This document shows, piece by piece, positions 2,596-64,000 of a stretch of DNA of 64,000 bases (positions are counted from its first letter, which is position 1; each line of letters starts with the position of its first letter). The stretch is from a virus: positions 1 through 64,000 of the IMG/VR virus record IMGVR_UViG_3300010885_017808; one strand, written 5' to 3'. Position numbers and translations under genes: made by a program. The notes under the pieces were generated by a model. It saw only the letters and a program-made list of their open reading frames with translations, ran no database searches and was not told the origin of the DNA.

Positions 2596-3051
2596 ATGAA
2601 TTGGTATGATCGGGTTTCTAAAGATATTTCAAACATACCTGATGCTGTGGCATATTATGAAGTTGAACTACTAGCAGCAAAGACTGATGTTCGCATAGCG
2701 GGAAACCTTGAAAGAGCTGCTGCTAATATGCCAGGTATTGTTGAAAACCGATTTAACCAACTTCAAGAGATTGAAGGTATTTTAGAATATTTAAATATTG
2801 AACTAAGACGCCTTCGTAGTCAACATTTTCGTAAGTATTTAGAAAGTTATCAACGTGCTTTGTCTTCTAGAGACTGTGAAAAGTTTGTAGAAGGCGAAGC
2901 AGACGTTGTAGACTTTGAAAAGATTATCAACGACTTTGCTCTGTTGCGTAACAAGTGGCTTGGAATTATTAAAGCTCTTGATATTAAACAATGGCAGGTA
3001 TCTAATATTGTTAAATTACGCACAGCAGGATTGGAAGACGCAACATTATGA
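2596..3051 (+). CDS. uvsY: UvsY-like recombination mediator
   Basis: UvsY loads UvsX onto gp32-coated DNA. The 151-aa length is near the T4 protein (137 aa). The C-terminal part (NKWLGIIKALDIKQWQVSNI) matches the pattern of T4 UvsY, where a W-G-I-x-x-x helix is followed by a short segment leading to an I-x-x-[LM]-R motif. The N-terminal half is helical and charged. The call rests on that C-terminal pattern and on the gene lying just after uvsX; overall identity to T4 is low. It overlaps the next gene by ATGA. Confidence 0.75.
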   Translation: MNWYDRVSKDISNIPDAVAYYEVELLAAKTDVRIAGNLERAAANMPGIVENRFNQLQEIEGILEYLNIELRRLRSQHFRKYLESYQRALSSRDCEKFVEGEADVVDFEKIINDFALLRNKWLGIIKALDIKQWQVSNIVKLRTAGLEDATL

Positions 3052-4013
3052 ACATTTTAGTAACAGGCGGTCTTGGATTAATAGGACATAATGTTGTTCA
3101 AAAGTTATCTAACTTAGGACACAAGGTTGTTATTTACGATAGTTGTACAAACTACGGAATCATCCCACAATCCGAACTAGATTATCTTATTAGCGAAAGA
3201 AAAAAGCTAGTAGGCAATCTTCCCTCATATGAAAGCGACATAGTCGAAAAGACTATGGTCGAACATGTCATTTCTCATAATAAGATTGATACTATTATTC
3301 ATCTAGCTAGCTTTCCTAGACAAAAAGTAGTTAATGCAGATCCTGTATTAGGTAGTACTGTAATGAGCACTGGATTGTTGGTTTTATTAGAAGCCGCAGT
3401 TAAACACGGAATTAAAAGATTTACCTATGCCAGTAGCAGTATGATCTATGGTGACTTTAAAGACTATGTTACCGAAGATGCAGCATGTAATCCAATTGGA
3501 CAATATGGTATTATGAAACTTGCAGGAGAATGGTTAGTTAAAGACTATTCACGAAAGCATGGTATTGAGTATACTATATTAAGACCCAGTGCTGTTTACG
3601 GGCCTTTAGATGTTGAAGATCGTGTTATATCAAAATTCTTGTTAACAGCAATGAGGGATCAAACTCTCAAAGTAAATGGCAGCAATGAAACTTTAGATTT
3701 TACCTATGTTGATGATGCTGCTGACGGCTTTGTTAATGCAACATTATCTCCCCTGGCTGCAAATAAGACATACAATATAACTAAAAGTCATAGTAAAACT
3801 TTATTAGCTGCTGCCAAATTAGCTGTTAAATTAGTAGGTAAAGGTTCAATCGAAGTTCGAGATAAAGATGCAGATTTCCCTAGTCGCGGAGCATTAGACA
3901 TTACAGCAGCACGTCAAGACTTTGGATTTAATCCTAAAATTGACATCGACGAAGGTTTTGAAATTTACCATAACTGGCTTAAAAATTCCAAATACTGGCA
4001 AAGTCAGTTATAA
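3048..4013 (+). CDS. NAD-dependent sugar epimerase/dehydratase (extended SDR)
   Basis: Extended short-chain dehydrogenases act on nucleotide sugars, usually as epimerases, dehydratases or reductases. The 321-aa protein begins with the Rossmann loop TGGLGLIG (residues 6-13). It carries the ASSSMIYGD strand and the catalytic pair YGIMK (Tyr-x-x-x-Lys) near residue 150, then RPSAVYGP, typical of NDP-sugar epimerases. It overlaps uvsY by ATGA yet opens the sugar block (fusion transferase and KpsC-like genes follow). The exact substrate cannot be read from the sequence. Confidence 0.85.
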   Translation: MNILVTGGLGLIGHNVVQKLSNLGHKVVIYDSCTNYGIIPQSELDYLISERKKLVGNLPSYESDIVEKTMVEHVISHNKIDTIIHLASFPRQKVVNADPVLGSTVMSTGLLVLLEAAVKHGIKRFTYASSSMIYGDFKDYVTEDAACNPIGQYGIMKLAGEWLVKDYSRKHGIEYTILRPSAVYGPLDVEDRVISKFLLTAMRDQTLKVNGSNETLDFTYVDDAADGFVNATLSPLAANKTYNITKSHSKTLLAAAKLAVKLVGKGSIEVRDKDADFPSRGALDITAARQDFGFNPKIDIDEGFEIYHNWLKNSKYWQSQL

Positions 4014-4046: not shown

Positions 4047-6182
4047 ATGAAACGCATTGTACTAATCACAGGGGGTTTCGACCCCCTTCATTCTGGGCAT
4101 ATTGCCTACTTCAAAGCAGCAAAAGCCTTAGGCGATATGTTAATAGTAGGAATAAATTCCGACAATTGGCTACGTCGAAAAAAAGGTCGTGCATTTATGC
4201 CTCTTTTAGAACGACAAACAATCATAGAAAATATTGCCGGTGTTGACAAAGTCATTACATTTAATGATAGCAATAATAGTGCAATTGCGGCTATTATTAA
4301 AGTTCGAGATGAATTTCCAGAAGACAGAATAATTTTTGCTAATGGCGGTGATAGGACCAAAGATAATATTCCCGAAATGAGCGTCAATGATTTTAATTTA
4401 GAATTTGTATTCGGTGTAGGTGGTGAAGACAAAAAGAATTCCAGCAGCTGGATATTAGAAGATTGGAAATCACCAAAGACAATCAAACCTTGGGGCTATT
4501 ATCGTGTGTTACACGAAGTTCCGGGAATGAAAGTTAAAGAACTCACAGTGAATCCAGGCAAAAGTTTATCAATGCAACGTCATTCACAAAGATCAGAATA
4601 TTGGATTATTAGTGAAGGAAAAGCAGTAGTAAATCGTGCAATGGATAACGGCATCCCGATGCAGCAGATTACTATTAACAATCACGGCGAATATAAAGTT
4701 CCAGTCGGTGAATGGCATCAATTAACTAATCCGTTTGACGTTCCTGTTAAAGTCGTAGAAATACAATACGGTGATAAATGCGATGAACAAGATATTGTTA
4801 GAGAACAAGTACCTACAGTATATGTTGGATGGGATTCAAGAGAAGATATTGCCTACAAAGTGTGTGAATATAGTATTCACAATCATAATAAAGATGTAAA
4901 CGTCTTTCCTATTAAACAACACGAAGTTATTCAAAATAATTTATACTGGAGAGATCCGGATAAATTCTCCTCAACAGAATTTACCTTTACTCGATTCTTA
5001 GTTCCGTACCTATCAAACTATCAAGGTTGGGCAATTTTTACTGATTGTGATTTTTTATTTTTAGATGATGTAAAAAAAGTCTTTGATCAAGCAGACGAAC
5101 AATATGCTGTTATGGTAGTTAAGCATGATTATACTCCTGCAGAAATAGAAAAAATGGACGGAGCATTACAGAGAAACTATCCAAGAAAAAATTGGAGTTC
5201 TTTTATTCTATGGAACTGCGGTCATAGGCTAAATCGCGCATTAGATCTAAGAATGGTCAACGAAGAGCCAGGAAAATATCTGCACAGATTTGCCTGGTTA
5301 CCAGATGAAGCTATCGGAAGTTTGTCTCTAGAATGGAATTGGCTAACAGACTGGTATAAAGAACCAATAGATGGGTCTCCAAAAGCTCTACACTATACGT
5401 TAGGGGGTCCGTGGTTTAAAAATTATAAAACATGTGACTATTCAGAACATTGGATGAATGCGTACGATGCAGTAGTAGAGCGAGACGAAGGAAAAGAAAA
5501 AATGGATGCATTTATTATCCACTTGCCGTCTATACCAGCAAGTTTAAAAACAGCAGTAGATTTACAGAAATCTCTAAACGAATATGGTATCAATGCACAT
5601 TTAGCTGAAGGTGTGTTAGGCAATGAAGCTGTAGATGTTATGGAATTGGAAGGTAGAAAAGTACATCCATGGGGTATTAAAGGTCCAAATTCACCGCCTG
5701 CACCCGATGATACCTCTGTGCTTAAAGCAATGTCTCCGGGAGTACGAGGATGTTTCCTTGGACATTATAGACTATGGCAAAAATGCGTAGATTTGAATAA
5801 ACCCATTATGATTTTTGAAGACGATGTTGTATTAACCAGAGGATTTGAATCTGTTACTTGGGAAGATGTATTGATAGTAGCTATTGGACATCCTACTAAG
5901 AGTGCAGACTATTGGACCAATCTCAATAGTCCAAGTGGCCGCCCCTTTGCAGAACCGTGGACAAAGAGTTCTATGCCCGGAGCAATGGGATACGTAATCA
6001 AACCACATGCAGCAAAAAAACTTTTAGAAGTATATGAAAAAACATTCTTGCCTGCAGACAATGCTATAAATCAATACCATGTTAAAATTGAAATTTGTTC
6101 TCACCTAATGGGTCGTGCCTTAGTTGACGAAGACGGAAAGAAAAGTTTAACAAGAACAAAATTTTGGAATAATCCTAAATGA
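4047..6182 (+). CDS. Four-domain fusion: cytidylyltransferase, cupin, glycosyltransferase, GT25
   Basis: This 711-aa protein joins four recognisable parts. Residues 1-135 form a nucleotidyltransferase (GGFDPLHSGH), which activates sugar or polyol phosphates with CTP or ATP. Residues 140-250 are a cupin starting KPWGYY with PVGEWHQL, as in the mannose-6-phosphate isomerase type found with sugar nucleotide enzymes. Residues 257-480 look like a GT-A glycosyltransferase with a DCD metal motif (FTDCDFLFLDD). Residues 486-711 match family 25 LPS glycosyltransferases (IIHLPS at the start, FLGHYRLW, IFEDDVVL). No internal stop or frame change is present. One chain could make and transfer an activated sugar; the substrate and acceptor are unknown. 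Confidence 0.8.
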   Translation: MKRIVLITGGFDPLHSGHIAYFKAAKALGDMLIVGINSDNWLRRKKGRAFMPLLERQTIIENIAGVDKVITFNDSNNSAIAAIIKVRDEFPEDRIIFANGGDRTKDNIPEMSVNDFNLEFVFGVGGEDKKNSSSWILEDWKSPKTIKPWGYYRVLHEVPGMKVKELTVNPGKSLSMQRHSQRSEYWIISEGKAVVNRAMDNGIPMQQITINNHGEYKVPVGEWHQLTNPFDVPVKVVEIQYGDKCDEQDIVREQVPTVYVGWDSREDIAYKVCEYSIHNHNKDVNVFPIKQHEVIQNNLYWRDPDKFSSTEFTFTRFLVPYLSNYQGWAIFTDCDFLFLDDVKKVFDQADEQYAVMVVKHDYTPAEIEKMDGALQRNYPRKNWSSFILWNCGHRLNRALDLRMVNEEPGKYLHRFAWLPDEAIGSLSLEWNWLTDWYKEPIDGSPKALHYTLGGPWFKNYKTCDYSEHWMNAYDAVVERDEGKEKMDAFIIHLPSIPASLKTAVDLQKSLNEYGINAHLAEGVLGNEAVDVMELEGRKVHPWGIKGPNSPPAPDDTSVLKAMSPGVRGCFLGHYRLWQKCVDLNKPIMIFEDDVVLTRGFESVTWEDVLIVAIGHPTKSADYWTNLNSPSGRPFAEPWTKSSMPGAMGYVIKPHAAKKLLEVYEKTFLPADNAINQYHVKIEICSHLMGRALVDEDGKKSLTRTKFWNNPK

Positions 6183-6985
6183 ACAACTGGATATTTTTAA
6201 GCAAAGACGGCCAAGACGAATATATTAATATGTTTGCCATGGGCACCGGTGGAAGAGTTGTATCTACTAAAGAATTTAATTTTGAAGATTCAACCGATCC
6301 CATAGTTATACGAGGTATTCTTAAAAAGAAAACAATTCAGGAATGTTGGAAGTCTAACAGAGATTTCTATTTTATGGATACTGGTTATATGGGTAATCAA
6401 CAAAATCCCCTAAATCCGTTAGGTTGGAAATTGTATCATAGAATTGTTAAAAATGATTTACAACACAATAACGAAATCATTACAAGACCCGATGATAGAT
6501 TTAAAAGACTGTCAATACCGTTGTATGATTGGAAGAAAGGTGGCCGTAAAATCCTAATAGCAAAACCAGACGAAAAACCAATGAAGTTCTATGGTTTAGA
6601 TTTGGATCAATGGTTAGCAGAAACTATTAATATTATTAAGCAACACACAGATAGAGAAATTGTAGTTAGAGATCGTGTAAAAAGCAGAATCGACAGAGTT
6701 GTACACAATACCTTAAAAGAAGCCTTAGATGACGATGTACATGCATTAGTAACATTTAATAGTAATGCTGCTACCGAAGCTGTGATGTATGGTTATCCGG
6801 CCTTTACGTTATCTGCAACACATGCAGCTAGTCCAGTAACACTACAAGATTTAAGCAAAATAGAAACTCCTTATTATCCCGACAGAGATAAAAGATATGC
6901 ATGGGCTTGCCACTTAGCCTATGGACAATTTCATAATACTGAATTAAAAGACGGATCCGCATTTAGGATACTGAACGAAACATGA
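6179..6985 (+). CDS. KpsC/KpsS-like capsule glycosyltransferase-related protein (paralogue 1)
   Basis: This 268-aa protein shares a plan with the products at 6987-7919 and 10362-11195: a hydrophobic N-terminal domain, then W-[LV]-x-x-x-I-x-x-I-[KQ]-[RQ]-H-T-D-R, then [VI]VVR, then a loop VTFNSNAATEAVMYGYPAF and a conserved SKIETPYYPDR tail. That layout resembles the KpsC/KpsS capsule-linker Kdo transferases (GT-B type). Here the VVRDRVK segment lacks the HP dipeptide of the other two copies. It overlaps the fusion gene by ATGA. The activity is inferred from family resemblance only. Confidence 0.6.
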   Translation: MNNWIFLSKDGQDEYINMFAMGTGGRVVSTKEFNFEDSTDPIVIRGILKKKTIQECWKSNRDFYFMDTGYMGNQQNPLNPLGWKLYHRIVKNDLQHNNEIITRPDDRFKRLSIPLYDWKKGGRKILIAKPDEKPMKFYGLDLDQWLAETINIIKQHTDREIVVRDRVKSRIDRVVHNTLKEALDDDVHALVTFNSNAATEAVMYGYPAFTLSATHAASPVTLQDLSKIETPYYPDRDKRYAWACHLAYGQFHNTELKDGSAFRILNET

Positions 6986-6986
6986 T

Positions 6987-7919
6987 ATGACTATATTAGC
7001 TGTTTATCATGGGTCTGTACCAAATAAAAAAAGTCAAGAAAAAATTGATATTCTGTTAAACTTTTCCGAAGGGGCAAGAAAAGCAGGAACAATAGTGCAT
7101 GACTATCAAGATCATAATTATAGACCATCGGATATTGCTATCATACAAGGATGGGTTGCTCCGGGCATTCCATCTAGTAAACATTTGCAATTAAGAAATA
7201 CAGTAATACAACAACAATTAAAACTTAACAAGTATGTAGTAGCAGTCGACAGTAATTTATTCCTTTACAAAAATAAAGACAATCCACTACATTATCTACG
7301 ATATAGTTTTAACGGAATATTTCCTAATACCGGAATATATTGTGACAGTGAAATAGATCCAACTAGATGGGCAAAAATTAGCGCCAGATCTAATCTACAA
7401 TTAAAAGATTGGCGAACAAACGGTGACCACGTATTGCTCTGCTTACAACGTAACGGTGGTTGGTCAATGGGCGGATTGGATGTTCAAGATTGGGCAGTAA
7501 CGGCTATCGAAGAAATACAAAGACATACAGATAGACAAATTGTTGTTAGAGCACATCCGGGAGATAAACACAGTTTCGACTATCTCAATCCTAGATTAGG
7601 AAGATGCAAAATTAAATTTGGTAAACGTGTTGTTCTAAGTTACAATAAAAATCTAGAAGATGATTTAAAAGATTGCTGGGCCGCAGTAAATTATAATTCC
7701 AGTCCCGTAGTAGGTGCAGCAATAGAAGGTGTTCCTATTTTTGTAACAGATCCGTTACGTAGCCAATGTGCAGAAGTTGCTAATACAGACTTATCACAAA
7801 TAGAAAACCCACTACTGCCCGATAGACAACGATGGGTTGAACGATTAAGTATGTTCCATTGGAACTTTGACGAATTAAAGTCCGGAGAATGCTGGACACA
7901 TATGAAAAAATTTATTTAA
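6987..7919 (+). CDS. KpsC/KpsS-like capsule glycosyltransferase-related protein (paralogue 2)
   Basis: A 310-aa relative of the preceding gene. It contains HTDRQIVVRAHPGD, VNYNSSPVVGAAIEGVP and SQIENPLLPDR, the marks shared with KpsC/KpsS-type transferases, where the R-x-HP segment and the N-S-S loop line the nucleotide-sugar site. It starts 1 nt after the stop of paralogue 1 and ends overlapping the convergent gene at 7912-8571. The duplication of this fold three times in 5 kb suggests successive sugar additions, or one enzyme plus diverged copies. Confidence 0.65.
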   Translation: MTILAVYHGSVPNKKSQEKIDILLNFSEGARKAGTIVHDYQDHNYRPSDIAIIQGWVAPGIPSSKHLQLRNTVIQQQLKLNKYVVAVDSNLFLYKNKDNPLHYLRYSFNGIFPNTGIYCDSEIDPTRWAKISARSNLQLKDWRTNGDHVLLCLQRNGGWSMGGLDVQDWAVTAIEEIQRHTDRQIVVRAHPGDKHSFDYLNPRLGRCKIKFGKRVVLSYNKNLEDDLKDCWAAVNYNSSPVVGAAIEGVPIFVTDPLRSQCAEVANTDLSQIENPLLPDRQRWVERLSMFHWNFDELKSGECWTHMKKFI

Positions 7920-8571
7920 ACTTTTTAATAGCATCAACTAATGCTGCGTAATCAGCATCTCGGTGACGTTGCGTTTTACTCCACATCCAATCGTCTTTCT
8001 GCTTCATCCAAGAGGTATGATAGTCATTAGTTACCTTATCTTTTACTACTTCAATGGGAAGCTCAAATGCACGTATTAGATGATGTCTTTCTATTCGTTG
8101 AGCTATTTCTAAAATCCAAGTATCAACATACCAGTGATAAAAATGAGGAGGTAGAAAGTATCCCAGAGTATTGATCCAATTTTTATGTAGACAAAAATGC
8201 GGACTTTTATATTTGCTAACACTAGGTGCTCTAGGATAGACACACACTAGTTTATCTGGATATTGATCAAATGCATCAAGAACTAAAAAACTCCAATTTG
8301 GAGTTATGAATTCACAATCGTCTCCTACTAGAAATAATATATCATGTTTAGCCTTCTCTGCCATTAAATTCCAGCTGTATGATGTACTTTGGTTAGGACC
8401 AATGGTATATTGACTTGGATCGAATAATTGTTTATATTCTTCTAATAGCGGATCGTCATTGTTGAGATATAACATTATTTCAAGATTACAACCTGCTGTT
8501 TTAATAGCAGAAGTAACCATTCGATGTGCTAGTTGAGGTCTACTTCTACTAGGTGTTAAAATACTAATCAC
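7912..8571 (-). CDS. GT-A type glycosyltransferase (family 2-like)
   Basis: A 219-aa protein beginning MISILTPSRSRP, the usual first strand of family 2 glycosyltransferases. It has an SYSWN segment ahead of FLVGDDCEF, where GDD is the metal- and nucleotide-sugar-binding motif. The length covers one catalytic domain and there is no membrane segment. It is on the minus strand, overlaps the methyltransferase upstream (ATGA), and converges with the KpsC-like gene by 8 nt. The substrate is unknown. Confidence 0.7.
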   Translation of the reverse strand: MISILTPSRSRPQLAHRMVTSAIKTAGCNLEIMLYLNNDDPLLEEYKQLFDPSQYTIGPNQSTSYSWNLMAEKAKHDILFLVGDDCEFITPNWSFLVLDAFDQYPDKLVCVYPRAPSVSKYKSPHFCLHKNWINTLGYFLPPHFYHWYVDTWILEIAQRIERHHLIRAFELPIEVVKDKVTNDYHTSWMKQKDDWMWSKTQRHRDADYAALVDAIKKFK

Positions 8572-9104
8572 TTCTTTATGCCCCAGAAATATAAATCTTT
8601 AGACGAAGAGTTTGAAGAAAATTCAAAATTTGAAAACAACGAATTTAAATCTGCAATTCTTTCAAAATCTTCTTTTACTAAGTTTCTATAATAATCCCAT
8701 CCTTTGCCTATAGTGAGGGGAGAATCTGCAGGAGAAGTTCTAGTAGTTCCGTGTTCTTTTCTACCAGTAGTAGCACAGGTAAAAATTATAATGCCGCCAG
8801 ACCGACAAATTCTAAGCATGTTAAAGAATGTTTCGGCCCAAAAAGGATTGTGTTCGAAGCATTCACAACTTATAACAGTATCGGCAGAATTATCCAAGGC
8901 ATTGTATGTTTGTCCTTCACATACTATATCAACATCTTTACCAGGTCCAACATCTATTCCTGTATAGTTGCAATTATCAAAAAACTGTCTTATAGATCCA
9001 TTAATATTAAGACTTCCTATTTCGAGAACTGTTGAATTTTCAAAATTATTTTTAAATTTTTCTTTAATGCTGCTAATGTAGGTTAGTTGTTGTGTATGTG
9101 CCAT
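8568..9104 (-). CDS. SAM-dependent methyltransferase (class I)
   Basis: A 178-aa protein with the SAM-binding loop VLEIGSLNINGS, an acidic end of the second strand (YTGIDVGPG), the DTVISCECFEH motif of type 11 methyltransferases and the GGIIIFTCAT strand. It sits between two glycosyltransferase-like genes on the same strand, so a sugar or glycan methylation role is plausible. It is compact but the core fold looks complete. Confidence 0.8.
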   Translation of the reverse strand: MAHTQQLTYISSIKEKFKNNFENSTVLEIGSLNINGSIRQFFDNCNYTGIDVGPGKDVDIVCEGQTYNALDNSADTVISCECFEHNPFWAETFFNMLRICRSGGIIIFTCATTGRKEHGTTRTSPADSPLTIGKGWDYYRNLVKEDFERIADLNSLFSNFEFSSNSSSKDLYFWGIKK

Positions 9105-11233: not shown

Positions 11234-12421
11234 ATGTCAACCTCTGTATATATTGAAGATACCTTCGTAGAATTTTTTGTATTATGTGGAACTCATACGA
11301 CAATTCTACAAAAATCAGATTCAAGTGCATGCGATAGTTTTTATAATCAGATAGCTGCCGGAAAGAAACTAACTGCTAATCAGGGTGCATATCTTTTAAA
11401 AATTTTAGAAAAGTATAAACACTTTGCTAAAAAGTGCGGATTAGATTTTACTGATATATTACCTAATCTTGTTTGGAAAAATCCATTTAGAACTTTAGAT
11501 TTAACAAAATCTATATTTGTTGAACAGACAGAAACTGATATTAATGTTTGTTTAAAGTTTCCCTATTCCTTAAAGAAAGAGTTTGAAACTGAGATTGAAA
11601 ATTCCAAAGGAGAACTTGTTAGCCAATGGGATCATAATAGGCAGTTACGAGTAATGAATTTGTATAATCAGAATATTATACATCTACATGAATTTTGTCA
11701 AAAATATAACTTTGAAATAGATAATTCTTTTCTTGATGCTGTAAGTCAAGTAGAAGAAATTTGGCAGCATCAACACGATGTAATTTGCTATAGCACTGTT
11801 GAAAATGATACAGTTGTACTACACAATGCCGTAGAATCTTCGCAGACATACTGGGAAGAACATAAAACTGATTCAGTTAATCACAACATGTTTTTAGCAA
11901 AAGTTATGGGATATCCTGTTAGCATTGAAGGAGCTCCAAAAACAATAATTGATAAAATTTCATCAACAGACGAGAAATCTTTTTGGATTAAGTCAATAGA
12001 TAGTTTTTTTGAACTGTACAATGATATAGGTGGAATTGCCTGTGTGTTGTTAGACAGAAATACTAAAAATGTTGTAGAATGGTTAGAACATTTTGTAAGA
12101 GCAGCTGAGTTACATAATGCACGGAATTTAATTAAGGTGTGTTTTAGAGACGAAGCTGACAAAAATTCCAATCTAAATACCTGGATCAAAGAACAAGGTC
12201 TAGGTGGAAAAGTTGATGAGGGTCGTATTTTAATATTCAATCATAAACCGCCCAAGTGGTTGTTTACTAAGAATATAGATGTTAAAATCGTAGTAACAAA
12301 TAGTTATACTCCTCATAATGAACCCGTTGCGGCTTCGTGGTTAGCAAGCCACTCCTGTATATGTTATGTGGGAGAAATTACACCTACTCCCCCGAGGAAT
12401 AAAAAAATTGTCAGTTTGTAA
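11234..12421 (+). CDS. Protein of unknown function upstream of UvsW
   Basis: A 395-aa protein that I do not recognise. The N-terminal half is helical and charged. The C-terminal half alternates strands and helices (GGIACVLLD, NLIKVCFRD, IDVKIVVTNSYTP), like an alpha/beta ATPase or toprim-type fold, but no Walker motif is visible. It ends 14 nt beyond the proposed uvsW start. Its place between a promoter and uvsW suggests a DNA-metabolism role, by context only. Confidence 0.7.
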   Translation: MSTSVYIEDTFVEFFVLCGTHTTILQKSDSSACDSFYNQIAAGKKLTANQGAYLLKILEKYKHFAKKCGLDFTDILPNLVWKNPFRTLDLTKSIFVEQTETDINVCLKFPYSLKKEFETEIENSKGELVSQWDHNRQLRVMNLYNQNIIHLHEFCQKYNFEIDNSFLDAVSQVEEIWQHQHDVICYSTVENDTVVLHNAVESSQTYWEEHKTDSVNHNMFLAKVMGYPVSIEGAPKTIIDKISSTDEKSFWIKSIDSFFELYNDIGGIACVLLDRNTKNVVEWLEHFVRAAELHNARNLIKVCFRDEADKNSNLNTWIKEQGLGGKVDEGRILIFNHKPPKWLFTKNIDVKIVVTNSYTPHNEPVAASWLASHSCICYVGEITPTPPRNKKIVSL

Positions 12422-14365: not shown

Positions 14366-14722
14366 ATGAAAGCAGGAAAAGTTTGGGGAGTTACCGAATT
14401 GCTAGAAGCAAACGGAGTATTAGAATTCCATCGATTAGAAGCAAGGGCCGGCGGCGTTTGTTCTAAACATAAACACAAATATAAGTGGAATGGATTCTTT
14501 GTAGAATCTGGAGAAATGATTGTTCGAGTATGGAAAAACAACTACGATCTAGTAGATGAAACAATACTAACAGCTGGACAATATACAAAAGTTGCTCCGG
14601 GCGAATATCATCAATTCGAAGCAGTAACTGATATTGTAGCATTTGAATTGTATTGGGCAGAGTTTGATCATGACGATATTGAGCGGGAAACTGTGGGGTT
14701 TAACAAACATGGGACAGCTTAA
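14366..14722 (+). CDS. Small cupin-domain protein
   Basis: A 118-aa single-domain cupin. The first conserved motif is SKHKHKYKWNGFFVESGE (metal-binding histidines and a glutamate) and the second is VAPGEYHQF. Cupins of this size bind metal and act as sugar isomerases, epimerases or sensors. It starts right after the preceding stop and overlaps the next gene. The substrate cannot be inferred. Confidence 0.75.
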   Translation: MKAGKVWGVTELLEANGVLEFHRLEARAGGVCSKHKHKYKWNGFFVESGEMIVRVWKNNYDLVDETILTAGQYTKVAPGEYHQFEAVTDIVAFELYWAEFDHDDIERETVGFNKHGTA

Positions 14723-59636: not shown

Positions 59637-60040
59637 CACAATTAACAGGTAAAATAGACAAGGGGTGGGGATATGAAATCATATGGGCCACTAACGACAA
59701 GTACTGTGGCAAGATTATGGTATTTGAAAAGGTAGGCGCTAAATTTAGTATGCACTTCCATAAAGAAAAAGATGAGTCGTGGTTTGTTAACGCTGGCGAA
59801 TTTAAATTAGTTTGGTGCGATACCGCAACTGCGACCTACAAAGAAGAAATTCTAAGAGAAGGCGATACCCGCCACGTACCCCCAATGGTACCACATCAGC
59901 TCATTGCATTAAAACCTAACTCAATGATATTTGAAGTCAGTACACCAGACTCAGTAGAAGATAATTACAGAATCATACCAGGAGATAGCCAAAGTGTGGG
60001 AACAACCGCAGCCGCAGCCGCAACAGTCAACCCAACCTAA
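59633..60040 (+). CDS. Cupin protein (mannose-6-phosphate isomerase type)
   Basis: A 135-aa cupin beginning with KGWGYEIIW, with metal-binding [15 protein letters not shown] and [13 protein letters not shown]. This K-x-W-G-[YH]-E opening is that of the cupin half of GDP-mannose pyrophosphorylase/isomerase enzymes. The C-terminus ([12 protein letters not shown]) is low complexity and overlaps the next gene by 47 nt in another frame. It leads into the heptose genes. Confidence 0.75.
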
Positions 60041-60623
60041 GATAATATGGTCCGGGGGATTATTTAGAACCAAGTGTGTTATTGGTTTAGATAGAGACGG
60101 TGTAATTAATCGAGACTTGGGCACATATTGTTTTAGCCCTGCCACCTTTGATCCTATCCCAGGAAGCATTGATGCCATCGCTGAACTTAGAAGCAAGGGA
60201 TATAAAATTGCAATAATTACAGATCAAGGTGGCATCGAAAAAGGATTGTACACTCAAGAAGATGTAGATCTAACACATGAATATCTGCTAAAACTCCTAG
60301 GAGAAGCAGGCTGTACTAGTATCGACGGAATTTATTACAGTGCCAGCAGTCGCAAAGAAGATATATATGCAAAGCCAAACACTGGAATGTTCAAACGATG
60401 TGAAAAAGAAATACCAGACATAAAATTCAAAGAAGGATATTATGTTGGTGACAAAATGAAAGATCTCAAAGCTGCAATAAATGTAGGTGCCAGACCTGTG
60501 TTAGTACGAACAGGGTATGGTGAAGAAACCGAAAAAGAGTTAGAGAAGTTCACTTATAGAAAAATTAAACAACAAACTATTATATTCGATAACCTAGCAC
60601 AGTTTGTGGAGTCGCTTGAATGA
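59994..60623 (+). CDS. gmhB: D-glycero-D-manno-heptose 1,7-bisphosphate phosphatase-like (GmhB)
   Basis: GmhB removes the 7-phosphate during ADP-heptose synthesis. The 209-aa HAD-family protein has the nucleophile motif GLDRDGVIN, motif II ITDQGG, and YAKPNTGMF then YYVGDKMKDLKAAINVG (motifs III and IV). After an extra Gln/Pro-rich N-terminus (about 20 aa) the length fits. It is followed by the HldE-like gene (ATGA overlap). The specificity (GmhB or HisB-type) rests on the neighbours. Confidence 0.8.
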   Translation: MWEQPQPQPQQSTQPKIIWSGGLFRTKCVIGLDRDGVINRDLGTYCFSPATFDPIPGSIDAIAELRSKGYKIAIITDQGGIEKGLYTQEDVDLTHEYLLKLLGEAGCTSIDGIYYSASSRKEDIYAKPNTGMFKRCEKEIPDIKFKEGYYVGDKMKDLKAAINVGARPVLVRTGYGEETEKELEKFTYRKIKQQTIIFDNLAQFVESLE

Positions 60624-61024
60624 CCCGAGTTGTTGTTAACGGAACCTTTGATATTATACATCTAGGACATTTAAAGTTACTAGAGTATGCAAGGAGTTTC
60701 CCTAACAGCTATGTTTTAGTATTAACTGACAGCGATCAGAGAATAACAGAATTGAAAGGATCTGATCGTCCAATCAACAATGAATATGAACGATGCAGTA
60801 TGCTATCTGCAATGAAATATGTAGATCGTATAGAAACATTTAACAGTGATCAAGAACTGATAGATTTAATCAAAGACTTTAAGCCCGACATTATGGTTAA
60901 AGGTAGCGATTATCAAGACAAGACAATAATAGGTGCAGAGTATTGTAAAGATATAAAATTTTATGACAGATTTAAACACTACTCAACAACTGACACTATT
61001 CAACGTATTAATAAAAGAGAATAA
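60620..61024 (+). CDS. HldE C-terminal-type nucleotidyltransferase
   Basis: A 134-aa cytidylyltransferase-fold protein with GTFDIIHLGHLKLLEYA and MVKGSDYQDKTIIGAEYC. It equals the adenylyltransferase half of HldE (RfaE), which turns heptose-1-phosphate into ADP-heptose. Here it is a separate gene, as is the kinase half (62400). It overlaps gmhB by ATGA. Confidence 0.75.
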   Translation: MTRVVVNGTFDIIHLGHLKLLEYARSFPNSYVLVLTDSDQRITELKGSDRPINNEYERCSMLSAMKYVDRIETFNSDQELIDLIKDFKPDIMVKGSDYQDKTIIGAEYCKDIKFYDRFKHYSTTDTIQRINKRE

Positions 61025-61029
61025 AAATT

Positions 61030-61689
61030 ATGCCCTTAATGACTATTAAAAGTATGTATCCCACAAATGAATTTGCTCCTTCGTGGACAATACCTATTCA
61101 TTTGTCCGAATGGAACGACTATGAAAAAATTGATAAAATTAGAAATTTTTTAATCGATAAAGAACCTAAATTGTTAAACAATCCTCCAAGTGTTGTTTAT
61201 TCTGCACACCACGATCGAGATAGTTTATTTAATTATGTAGATGTATTGCCCGAGCTGAATGAGCTATTAAGATTCTTAAGAATTAGTTTTGTAAATTGTA
61301 TACACGATACGCATAGCGAGTTACGAGATTGTCATATTGTATCTTGGTGGAACGTTGTATATAAAGGTCAAGAACTAACTAAGCATTTACATGATGCAGG
61401 GCCTACCGGTTACCTAAGTGGAAACATGCATTTAGATAATTATGAAACAACAACTGATTATCATGTTCCATTCGATCGTACAAATATAAATCCTTTTCCT
61501 AATCGAAAAGGAGGTCTAACAATTTTTCCAAGTTACCTGCCTCATAGTGTAGGTGTGTATAACGGTGATAGTCCAAGAGTTAGTCTTGGTTTTGATTTCA
61601 CTTTATCAAAGCCAAATGAACACGATAACATTCCATTTATGAGTAAAGAAATTTTAGATTCATTGAGAATAGTAAGACCTAACAGTTAA
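61030..61689 (+). CDS. 2OG-oxygenase-like protein (copy 1)
   Basis: A 219-aa protein. IVSWWNVVYKGQELTKHLHD and GNMHLDNYETTTDYHVPFD hold the metal-binding histidine/aspartate and IFPSYLPHSVGVYNGDSPRV the distal histidine and 2OG-binding arginine, as in 2OG-FeII_5 enzymes. It forms a tandem pair with 61707-62393 inside the heptose block, so an oxidation of the sugar or of a protein is possible. Confidence 0.7.
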   Translation: MPLMTIKSMYPTNEFAPSWTIPIHLSEWNDYEKIDKIRNFLIDKEPKLLNNPPSVVYSAHHDRDSLFNYVDVLPELNELLRFLRISFVNCIHDTHSELRDCHIVSWWNVVYKGQELTKHLHDAGPTGYLSGNMHLDNYETTTDYHVPFDRTNINPFPNRKGGLTIFPSYLPHSVGVYNGDSPRVSLGFDFTLSKPNEHDNIPFMSKEILDSLRIVRPNS

Positions 61690-61706
61690 TTGCTATAGGA
61701 AAAATT

Positions 61707-62393
61707 ATGAATATAATTAGATTTAAAAGTTTACATCCTAAAACTGAATTTTCTCCTGAGTGGGATATTCCTCTATATGTATCACAATGGAAAGAATCCG
61801 ATAAGATTAATAAAATTAAAAATTTTTTAATTAATAAAGAAGAAGAAGTAAAATCTTTACCGATGGGAACTAGTGCAGCATACGGTGACGGTCGAACAGG
61901 GTTAGGTCTAAACAGTGTAACTTCAAAATCGGGAACATATAGTTTATTTGACTTTAGAAATGAATTACCCGAGTTTGATGAGCTGTTAAATTTTTTAAGA
62001 TGCAGCTATGTAGATTTTGTTTTACAAAATCAGTCAGAAATTCGTAATTTACACATTGTATGTTGGTACAATATTGTTAGGACAGGGCAAGAAATACAAA
62101 AACATTTCCACGGTGCTAATCATAACATGTATCTAAGTGGCAACATGCATCTTGATGACTATCCAACATCAACAGATTATCATATACCTCACGATGATAG
62201 CATAGTCCATAAAATTGAAAATATAATTGGTGGAATAACAATGTTTCCAAGTTACTTGCCTCATAAAGTAGGAGTGTATACTGGAGAGGAACTTAGAGTA
62301 AGTGTTGCATTTGATTTACATATACAAGAACCCAAAGAGCTTGTATCAATTCCATTTATGAACGAAGAAATTTTAAATTCATTAGGATTTTAA
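61707..62393 (+). CDS. 2OG-oxygenase-like protein (copy 2)
   Basis: A 228-aa paralogue of the preceding gene: both begin with a K-S-[ML]-[YH]-P-[TK]-[NT]-E-F segment and share [VI]-[SC]-W-[WY]-N-[VI]-V, GNMHLD, [DN]-Y-H-[VI]-P, FPSYLPH and the R-V-S strand. The copy has a Gly/Thr-rich insert near residue 60. The duplication is old, judging from the many differences. Confidence 0.7.
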   Translation: MNIIRFKSLHPKTEFSPEWDIPLYVSQWKESDKINKIKNFLINKEEEVKSLPMGTSAAYGDGRTGLGLNSVTSKSGTYSLFDFRNELPEFDELLNFLRCSYVDFVLQNQSEIRNLHIVCWYNIVRTGQEIQKHFHGANHNMYLSGNMHLDDYPTSTDYHIPHDDSIVHKIENIIGGITMFPSYLPHKVGVYTGEELRVSVAFDLHIQEPKELVSIPFMNEEILNSLGF

Positions 62394-62399
62394 TACTTT

Positions 62400-63137
62400 A
62401 TGACTACCCAACCAAAATTCAAAATATTGTTAATAGGCGATGACTGTGTTGATGTATATCAATATGGAACAGTAGATCGTATTAGTCCAGAAGCCCCTGT
62501 GCCGATATTCAAATACATTGACGAAGTATCTAAGCCCGGCATGGCTGCAAATGTCAAGGCTAACCTAGAAGCACTGGGCTGTGATGTTTCTTACATGCAC
62601 GGTGAAACTAGCACAAAGACTAGACTAATAGATATTCGTAGCAAACAACACATTGTAAGAATTGATAACGATGTACAATCAAAACCCATTGACTTTACTA
62701 ATATTTCTGAATCATACGATGCTGTGGTAATCAGCGACTACAACAAAGGAACAGTTAGCTATGAGCTAATTGAAGGTATACGAAAGAACTATCGAGGCCC
62801 AATCTTTGTTGATACAAAGAAAACTGATCTTGCTAGACTAGAAGGATGCATTGTAAAAATTAACAGTTTAGAAAATAGCCTAATCAAAACTACCTGCACT
62901 GATTTAATTGTTACTTTGGGCAAGCATGGTGCAGTATATAAAAACGAAACGTATCCTGCACAAGCCGTCGAAGTTGCAGATGTATGCGGCGCCGGCGATA
63001 CATTCTTAGCAGCATTGACCTATCAGTATATTGACACTGACAATATCGAACAATCAATACGATTTGCCATACAGGCCAGTGCAGTGACAGTACAGCATTT
63101 AGGAGTCTATGCTCCGACATTAAAGGAAATGGGATGA
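62400..63137 (+). CDS. Heptose-7-phosphate kinase-like (HldE N-terminal type, PfkB family)
   Basis: A 245-aa PfkB-family kinase. ILLIGDDCVDVYQYGTVDRI, then SPEAPVPIFKY, KPGMAANVKANLEALG, VVISDYNKGTVS and the catalytic CGAGDTFLAAL match the kinase half of HldE, which phosphorylates D-glycero-D-manno-heptose-7-phosphate. It is shorter than bacterial HldE-N (about 320 aa), with a trimmed lid. It overlaps the epimerase by ATGA. Confidence 0.8.
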   Translation: MTTQPKFKILLIGDDCVDVYQYGTVDRISPEAPVPIFKYIDEVSKPGMAANVKANLEALGCDVSYMHGETSTKTRLIDIRSKQHIVRIDNDVQSKPIDFTNISESYDAVVISDYNKGTVSYELIEGIRKNYRGPIFVDTKKTDLARLEGCIVKINSLENSLIKTTCTDLIVTLGKHGAVYKNETYPAQAVEVADVCGAGDTFLAALTYQYIDTDNIEQSIRFAIQASAVTVQHLGVYAPTLKEMG

Positions 63138-64000
63138 TAGTAGTAACAGGTGCCGGAGGCTTCATAGGCAGTGTTGTAGTTGGGTATTTGAATTCTCAAG
63201 GTATAACTGACCTAATATTGTTCGACGACTTGCCAACTGGCAATCAGTATAAAAATTTAATAGGTAAACAATATATTAGTTTGCACAGCGCAGATGAGAT
63301 GTTGACAGATGCAGAAGACATAGAATATGTTATTCATCTAGGTGCAAACTCTAATACACTAGAGCGTGACTGGGCCAGTTTATACAAAACTAATGTTTGC
63401 AGTACTCGCAGATGGAACCAGTTTTGTGCAGAAAATAATATTCCGTTTATCTTTGCCAGCAGTGCCGCAGTTTATGGAAATGGGCAAGGACCGATGAATC
63501 ATTATGCATTTAGTAAAGCAGTAAGTGAGAATGAAATCAACGGAGTTGTACTTAGATTGTTTAATGTCTACGGACCCAACGAATACCATAAAGGTCGTAT
63601 GGCCAGTACTATAATGCACTGGTACAATCAAATACAAGAAACTGGACAGTACAAAATATTTGAAGGTAGTAGACAACTACGTAGAGATTTAATTCACGTA
63701 GAAGATGTTGCAAAAACAATCTATCATTTTGTGTTAAACTATCAACCAGGTACTTACGATCTAGGCACAGGTGTTAGTGTAGACTTTGAAACAGTAGCAG
63801 ACACCGTAGCAGCAACTATGTGTAAAGGTAATAAAAATTTTATAATAATGCCCGAGGATCTTAAAGCACAATATCAAAAAGATACAAAGGCAGATACAAC
63901 AGCATTACGTAATTTTGGCGTTGATGTTAGCGAATTTCTAACAATTAAAAACGGCATTGAAAACTACGTTGAATATTTAAATTCTAATACGTTCTACTAA
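63134..64000 (+). CDS. hldD: ADP-glyceromanno-heptose 6-epimerase-like (HldD)
   Basis: An extended SDR of 288 aa. The Rossmann loop is TGAGGFIG; IHLGANSNTLERDW and FASSAAVYG follow. NHYAFSKAVSE has the catalytic Tyr-x-x-x-Lys. LFNVYGPNEYHKGRMAST and KIFEGSRQLRRDLIHVEDV are typical of HldD, which converts ADP-D- to ADP-L-glycero-manno-heptose. The stop (63998-64000) is the end of the window, so downstream partners such as GmhA may lie beyond. Confidence 0.85.
   Translation: MIVVTGAGGFIGSVVVGYLNSQGITDLILFDDLPTGNQYKNLIGKQYISLHSADEMLTDAEDIEYVIHLGANSNTLERDWASLYKTNVCSTRRWNQFCAENNIPFIFASSAAVYGNGQGPMNHYAFSKAVSENEINGVVLRLFNVYGPNEYHKGRMASTIMHWYNQIQETGQYKIFEGSRQLRRDLIHVEDVAKTIYHFVLNYQPGTYDLGTGVSVDFETVADTVAATMCKGNKNFIIMPEDLKAQYQKDTKADTTALRNFGVDVSEFLTIKNGIENYVEYLNSNTFY

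What the first reader, a model, noticed from the sequence alone, without database searches (positions are those of the whole stretch)
4047..6182. One polypeptide joining a cytidylyltransferase, a cupin and two glycosyltransferases
Four sugar-metabolism domains are fused in a 711-residue chain without an internal stop. Activation, a cupin step and two transfers could be channelled. The cupin resembles the 59633 protein and the nucleotidyltransferase is of the same superfamily as the 60620 protein of the heptose block, so the two loci may share a pathway.
Basis: partly seen in the sequence, partly recalled or inferred. Interest (0 to 1): 0.75.

Follow-up and report, generated by a model that had tools for sequence, protein, structure and literature searches.

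The report
Phage GDP-mannose maker fused to glycosyltransferases
A large bacterial virus encodes, in one 711-residue chain, what looks like a previously unrecognised type of enzyme for making the activated sugar GDP-mannose, joined to two sugar-transferring domains; the two-domain front half recurs in hundreds of viral contigs and in abundant marine bacteria, where it appears to stand in for the usual enzyme.

Summary
The 711-residue ORF at 4047-6182 is real. It holds four domains with intact motifs: an HldC/TagD-like cytidylyltransferase-fold domain (CT), a type II phosphomannose isomerase (PMI) cupin, a GT8/GT24-fold glycosyltransferase and a GT25 glycosyltransferase. The four-way fusion is seen only in this virus (three identical contigs). 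In relatives the CT-cupin is a stable two-domain protein and the GTs are separate genes of the same uvsXY-linked cassette, so this is a local fusion of neighbours.

The heptose link is not supported. Comparative evidence points to GDP-mannose. In bacteria, CT sits in operons with HAD phosphomannomutase, PMI cupin, GDP-mannose dehydratase (GMD) and fucose synthase, and once CT-cupin is fused to GMD. Of 34 CT-bearing bacterial genomes, none has ManC over its cut-off while 19 have GMD; CT-lacking GMD genomes had ManC in 7 of 10 (Fisher p 8e-5). Three CT-bearing phages also carry the rare HAD phosphomannomutase.

Best explanation: CT-cupin is a non-orthologous ManC (PMI plus a HIGH-superfamily mannose-1-phosphate guanylyltransferase), here tethered to two transferases. 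Activity, nucleotide specificity and GT donors are inferred, not shown. I found no earlier description in the papers searched.

The parts
4047..6182 (+). 711-aa four-domain ORF, stop included
   Evidence: two further identical contigs
4047..4466 (+). CT domain (aa 1-140), HIGH-superfamily nucleotidyltransferase; proposed mannose-1-phosphate guanylyltransferase
   Evidence: Pfam CTP_transf_like; invariant motifs; operon partners and co-occurrence
4464..4808 (+). Cupin domain (about aa 140-254); proposed phosphomannose isomerase
   Evidence: MannoseP_isomer 7.8e-23; TIGR01479 C-terminal part; Foldseek match to Thermococcus phosphomannose isomerase 7zvy, TMt 0.84
4815..5501 (+). GT8/GT24-like glycosyltransferase domain (about aa 257-485), no start codon of its own
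   Evidence: PHROG 28018; GlyE, LgtC and UGGT folds; DxD and HYT-GxP invariant; junction
5502..6179 (+). GT25 glycosyltransferase domain (aa 486-711); an ATG at 5502-5504 matches the start of free-standing relatives
   Evidence: PF01755; EDD invariant; sequence
3048..4013 (+). Upstream SDR sugar epimerase/dehydratase gene of the same cassette
   Evidence: Pfam Epimerase 2.1e-42; homologues in 9 loci
6179..6985 (+). Downstream gene, start overlapping the stop of the fusion ORF; its homologue is fused to the GT8/24-like domain in L062
6987..7919 (+). Downstream cassette gene, no Pfam or PHROG match
7912..8571 (-). Cassette GT2 glycosyltransferase gene
   Evidence: Pfam Glycos_transf_2, 6.1e-6
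8568..9104 (-). Cassette methyltransferase-like gene
   Evidence: Pfam Methyltransf_11, 6.1e-5

Best explanation
Residues 1-254 are a bifunctional enzyme that works like ManC/AlgA but is built differently. The cupin interconverts fructose-6-phosphate and mannose-6-phosphate. A separate phosphomannomutase, from the host or elsewhere in the phage, makes mannose-1-phosphate. The HldC/TagD-like domain then joins mannose-1-phosphate to GTP, giving GDP-mannose and pyrophosphate. In this jumbo phage the neighbouring GT8/24-like and GT25 genes have fused in frame to it, so GDP-mannose synthesis is tethered to two transferases that decorate a phage or host glycan. Shown here: domain content, conserved motifs, operon partners, co-occurrence with GMD and HAD phosphomannomutase, and absence of ManC over cut-off. 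Inferred: the reactions, the use of GTP, and the donors and acceptors of the GTs.
For: CT-cupin-GMD in one ORF in L152 and operons HAD-phosphomannomutase, CT, (cupin), GT2, GMD, Fcl in L148 and L174; cupin, CT, GMD in L173; CT, GMD, Fcl in L162; cupin, CT, GMD, Fcl in G183. GMDs are equivalogs, 553-613 bits over a cut-off of 415. ManC over cut-off in 0 of 34 CT genomes, GMD in 19; CT-lacking genomes with GMD have ManC in 7 of 10 (Fisher p 7.7e-5). G005 has cupin-CT-GMD and no PF00483 match at all. The rare HAD phosphomannomutase is adjacent to CT in four genomes and present in CT-bearing S-SSM7, P-TIM68 and contig G185; all five close phosphomannomutase homologues in 50,697 phage records are in CT-bearing records. 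The cupin is PF01050 and resembles a solved phosphomannose isomerase.
Against: No biochemistry. The CT operons with GMD and phosphomannomutase come from bacterial members 40-57% identical to the phage CT, and substrate could have shifted. Most CT-cupin phages show no GMD, and most tested no HAD phosphomannomutase, though many are fragments. Genomes are mostly MAGs or single cells of unknown completeness and are related, so the counts are not independent. A small NTP_transferase of unknown specificity remains in some of these genomes. The second His of the cupin HxH is not conserved. Known GT8/24 and GT25 enzymes mostly use UDP-sugars (general knowledge).
Confidence: 0.65

Rival explanations
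1. The CT is a heptose-1-phosphate nucleotidyltransferase and the protein belongs to the phage's ADP-heptose pathway.
For: The closest NCBIfam model for the CT alone is rfaE domain II (5.7e-19) and PHROG 7878 carries the heptose label; the phage has an ADP-heptose gene block.
Against: 68 bits against a cut-off of 181.5; the block has its own HldC (60620), only 30% identical over 76 aa to the fused CT and with different motifs; the fused cupin is a mannose isomerase family; bacterial partners are GMD, Fcl and phosphomannomutase, not heptose genes.
Confidence: 0.1
2. The CT activates mannose-1-phosphate or a related sugar phosphate with a nucleotide other than GTP, or the CT-cupin makes another GDP-sugar such as a GDP-heptose, used by GMD-like enzymes.
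For: Other members of the superfamily use ATP or CTP; GMD homologues acting on GDP-heptose are known (general knowledge); specificity cannot be read from sequence here.
Against: Partner GMDs pass the GMD equivalog cut-off, and Fcl, PMI cupin and phosphomannomutase fit mannose and GDP.
Confidence: 0.18
3. The fusion of four domains is an assembly or sequencing artefact.
For: In all other relatives examined the GTs are separate from the CT-cupin; the three identical contigs may share a site or reads.
Against: Identity over kilobases in three contigs; the first GT has no start codon of its own, which a single indel at a stop/start overlap would not produce; the second junction is in frame with uniform composition.
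Confidence: 0.04
4. The GT domains do not use the product of the CT-cupin; the fusion is a neutral joining of operon neighbours without a channel.
For: The GT8/24-like domain is also fused to other partners in L009 and L062; GT8/24 and GT25 enzymes mostly use UDP-sugars (general knowledge).
Against: The GT8/24-like gene follows the CT-cupin gene in many phages.
Confidence: 0.5

Closest known systems
ManC/AlgA/XanB, bifunctional mannose-1-phosphate guanylyltransferase/phosphomannose isomerase (TIGR01479)
   Same: C-terminal PMI cupin; proposed pair of activities; operon company of GMD, Fcl and phosphomannomutase
   Different: The nucleotidyltransferase domain is of the HIGH/cytidylyltransferase superfamily instead of PF00483; order NTase then cupin is the same; 77 bits against a cut-off of 373
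HldC / HldE domain II, heptose-1-phosphate adenylyltransferase (TIGR02199)
   Same: Nearest nucleotidyltransferase model; same fold family and HxGH motif
   Different: Below cut-off; FANGGDR and SSSW signatures; mannose-type neighbours; fused to a cupin
TagD/GCT, glycerol-3-phosphate cytidylyltransferase (TIGR01518; PDB 1coz)
   Same: Superfamily, HxGH motif
   Different: 46.7 bits against a cut-off of 165.4; different C-terminal motif and context
Cyanophage S-SCSM1 type II PMI (PMC9602691)
   Same: Phage-encoded PMI cupin of the same Pfam family, in a GDP-mannose gene cluster
   Different: Stand-alone cupin; no CT reported or found
GT25 and GT8/GT24 glycosyltransferases
   Same: Pfam match and EDD motif for GT25; fold and DxD motif for the GT8/24-like domain
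   Different: Joined to each other and to a nucleotide-sugar synthase; donors unknown

Membership tests
ManC/AlgA (TIGR01479) | Whole-protein score over the curated cut-off of 372.95 | tested here: not met
   77.1 bits, C-terminal part only
ManC/AlgA (TIGR01479) | N-terminal PF00483-type guanylyltransferase domain | tested here: not met
   CTP_transf_like in its place
ManC/AlgA (TIGR01479) | C-terminal PMI cupin PF01050 | tested here: met
   81.3 bits against 23.6
ManC/AlgA (TIGR01479) | GDP-mannose pyrophosphorylase and PMI activities | not testable with these tools
   Needs enzyme assays; inferred from context only
HldC/HldE domain II (TIGR02199) | Score over the cut-off of 181.5 | tested here: not met
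   68.4 bits
HldC/HldE domain II (TIGR02199) | Operon with heptose genes | tested here: not met
   Neighbours of the CT family are mannose/fucose genes where informative; the phage heptose block has a separate HldC
TagD/GCT (TIGR01518) | Score over the cut-off of 165.4 | tested here: not met
   46.7 bits
Cytidylyltransferase-like superfamily (PF01467) | Gathering score and HxGH motif | tested here: met
   47.8 bits against 21; H15 and H18 invariant
GT25 (PF01755) | Gathering score and EDD motif | tested here: met
   69.4 bits against 24; EDD invariant
GT8/GT24 | Sequence match to a GT8 or GT24 family model | tested here: not met
   No Pfam hit in this region; only PHROG 28018
GT8/GT24 | GT-A fold of this group with DxD | tested here: met
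   Foldseek to GlyE, LgtC, UGGT, E 1e-9 to 1e-6; DxD invariant; model pLDDT 77.5

The most novel reading that the evidence does not exclude
A second, unrelated fold for GDP-mannose pyrophosphorylase exists: a HIGH-superfamily domain, usually fused to a PMI cupin, replaces ManC in SAR11, SAR86, Patescibacteria, gut Alphaproteobacteria and many phages, and in this jumbo phage it has become part of a single-chain GDP-mannose synthase and glycosyltransferase.
Probability: 0.6. Interest if true: 0.75.

Novelty: new variant of a known kind. Interest (0 to 1): 0.62.

Why it matters
If true, a large set of genes now labelled heptose-1-phosphate adenylyltransferase, glycerol-3-phosphate cytidylyltransferase or hypothetical in phages makes GDP-mannose. 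That would fill a missing step in GDP-fucose pathways of bacteria without ManC, add a case of non-orthologous displacement in a central sugar-nucleotide step, and show that many T4-like and jumbo phages keep this gene near their recombination core. The four-domain fusion is a natural tethered synthase and transferase that can be assayed directly.

Tried and rejected
Heptose link: rejected on cut-offs, motifs and operon partners. Similarity of the cupin to the 59633 protein: weak (25% over 51 aa); the 14366 cupin is nearer (28% over 112 aa) but matches WbuC-type cupins weakly. Collagen-like repeats as a target for GT25 plus the 2OG oxygenases: no run of six or more Gxx repeats in the window. 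A full-length alignment of all four domains misaligned the partial sequences, so the CT-cupin and the GT8/24-like domain were folded apart. GMD in CT-cupin phages: only G200, 406 bits, below cut-off; S-SCSM1 has GMD but no CT was found there. The SAR11 neighbourhood (polA, MFS, PEPCK) is uninformative about substrate. The careful tree did not finish; the quick tree groups nearly all viral CT-cupins together, with the window's near L007 and L012. Literature searches found no description of this family as a guanylyltransferase, but only openly licensed papers were searchable.

Full report
OBSERVATION. The ORF 4047-6182 (+) is 711 aa with no internal stop. Pfam gives a cytidylyltransferase-like domain (7-78), a mannose-6-phosphate isomerase cupin (144-252) and a GT25 domain (552-603), all over gathering scores. 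The third quarter matches only PHROG 28018, but its AlphaFold model (pLDDT 77.5) matches GT8/GT24 enzymes. The window lies in a 64.5 kb viral record whose UvsX is 58-68% identical to those of Atu_ph07, CBB and GAP32-type jumbo phages.

FUSION. Searching IMG/VR with the protein gave 480 stretches encoding relatives, of which 80 were kept. In nearly all of these the first 252 residues are a separate protein of about 250-300 aa. The GT8/24-like gene follows it in many phages, often with overlapping stop and start. GT25 is a separate gene of the neighbourhood in 15 loci. Only two contigs carry the four-way fusion, and they are identical to the window over 5.9 and 12.2 kb. The GT8/24-like domain is joined to other partners elsewhere: a 481-aa protein in L009 and, in L062, a homologue of the window's 6179 gene. 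So the fusion joins cassette neighbours, and the CT-cupin is the old, stable unit. In the window the cassette lies between uvsX/uvsY and a helicase gene at 12366, and uvsX or uvsY homologues occur in about half of the 94 loci compared.

CONSERVATION. Across 59 distinct viral CT-cupins the CT motifs (GGFDPxHSGH, NSDxWLxRKKG, FANGGDRTKDNIPEM, SSSW) and cupin residues Q177, H179, R182, E184, W186, H224, E238 and R252 are invariant or nearly so. The core of these is kept in bacteria. The second His of the cupin HxH (Q181 here) varies. None of the four domains looks degenerate.

WHAT THE CT-CUPIN MAKES. In bacteria the CT domain occurs fused to the cupin, next to a separate cupin, or alone. Where the neighbours are informative they are mannose and fucose enzymes. 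L174: HAD phosphomannomutase, CT, GT2, GMD, Fcl. L148: HAD phosphomannomutase, CT, cupin, GT2, GMD, Fcl. L173: cupin, CT, GMD. G183: cupin, CT, GMD, Fcl. L162: CT, GMD, Fcl. L152: CT, cupin and GMD in a single 665-aa ORF. The GMDs score 553-613 bits against a 415 cut-off. In L148 every step from fructose-6-phosphate to GDP-fucose has a gene except the guanylyltransferase, and CT sits in that gap.

CO-OCCURRENCE. Of 28 genomes behind CT loci none has ManC over its cut-off; the matches are almost all the C-terminal cupin part, while 14 have GMD over cut-off. In a separate Alphaproteobacteria sample, 6 further CT genomes gave ManC 0 of 6 and GMD 5 of 6. Nine CT-lacking members of one order had neither. 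CT-lacking genomes with GMD had ManC in 7 of 10. Pooled, 0 of 19 against 7 of 10, Fisher p 7.7e-5; related genomes are not independent and completeness is unknown. G005 has cupin-CT-GMD but no PF00483 match at all; those PF00483 proteins that I read in the others look like RmlA, GlgC, GalU, GlmU or MurU types by eye, with a few small ones of unknown specificity. The HAD phosphomannomutase family PF03332, seen in 1 of 14 control genomes, lies within about 30 bp of CT in G006, G105 and G183 and in the same operon in G013. It is also present in the CT-bearing phages S-SSM7, P-TIM68 and contig G185, but not in S-SCSM2R, which has CT, nor in most viral fragments tested. In 50,697 phage records all five close phosphomannomutase homologues are in CT-bearing records, and five of eight CT records have one; these five records are only two or three distinct viruses.

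MECHANISM. The simplest reading is a ManC-like bifunctional enzyme with a different guanylyltransferase fold: the cupin for fructose-6-phosphate to mannose-6-phosphate, a separate mutase, then CT with GTP. The two GTs would use this product or another activated sugar. The reactions and the nucleotide are inferred. The GT donors are the weakest part, since known relatives mostly use UDP-sugars (general knowledge). The GT25 domain keeps an in-frame ATG at 5502 with AAGGA nine bases upstream, so a shorter GT25 product is possible.

KNOWN FAMILIES. By their cut-offs it is not a member of TIGR01479, TIGR02199 or TIGR01518. By context it works like ManC. RefSeq labels the cyanophage CTs as bifunctional heptose 7-phosphate kinase/heptose 1-phosphate adenyltransferase. 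The S-SCSM1 paper reports a phage PMI with GMD and fucose synthase and does not mention a guanylyltransferase (PMC9602691). I found no earlier statement of this function in the open papers searched.

VERDICT. The wider CT-cupin family is more interesting than the fusion itself.

Noticed in passing
window 59994-64000: Apparently complete ADP-heptose gene block in a phage: GmhB-like phosphatase, HldC, HldA-like kinase and HldD-like epimerase, with two 2OG-Fe(II) oxygenase genes between.
   Followed up: partly
window 14366-14722: A third, stand-alone cupin, 28% identical over 112 aa to the fused cupin.
   Followed up: partly
window 5488-5504: Shine-Dalgarno-like AAGGA nine bases before an in-frame ATG at the start of the GT25 domain; possible internal start.
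   Followed up: no
L104 (contig PBPT01000016.1, 335 kb): A contig binned as Neomarinimicrobiota carries the phage-type order with CT-cupin and the GT8/24-like gene; it looks like a jumbo phage in a MAG.
   Followed up: partly
L129 and L151: Contigs binned to Rhodobacteraceae and Bacteroidetes share the same gene order around CT-cupin, with a protein of about 414 aa separate in one and fused in front of the CT in the other; probably viral contigs.
   Followed up: no
L028, L040, L050: A second group of CT-cupin viral contigs carries GTP cyclohydrolase I and 6-pyruvoyl tetrahydropterin synthase-type genes, as in 7-deazaguanine pathways.
   Followed up: no
L112 and other Pelagibacteraceae loci: In SAR11 the CT-cupin gene lies between polA and an MFS transporter in a strongly conserved order, although two of four SAR11 genomes tested show no GMD-like protein of high score.
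   Followed up: partly
L009:7546-8988 and L062:3267-4958: The GT8/24-like domain is fused to different C-terminal partners in other phages.
   Followed up: partly
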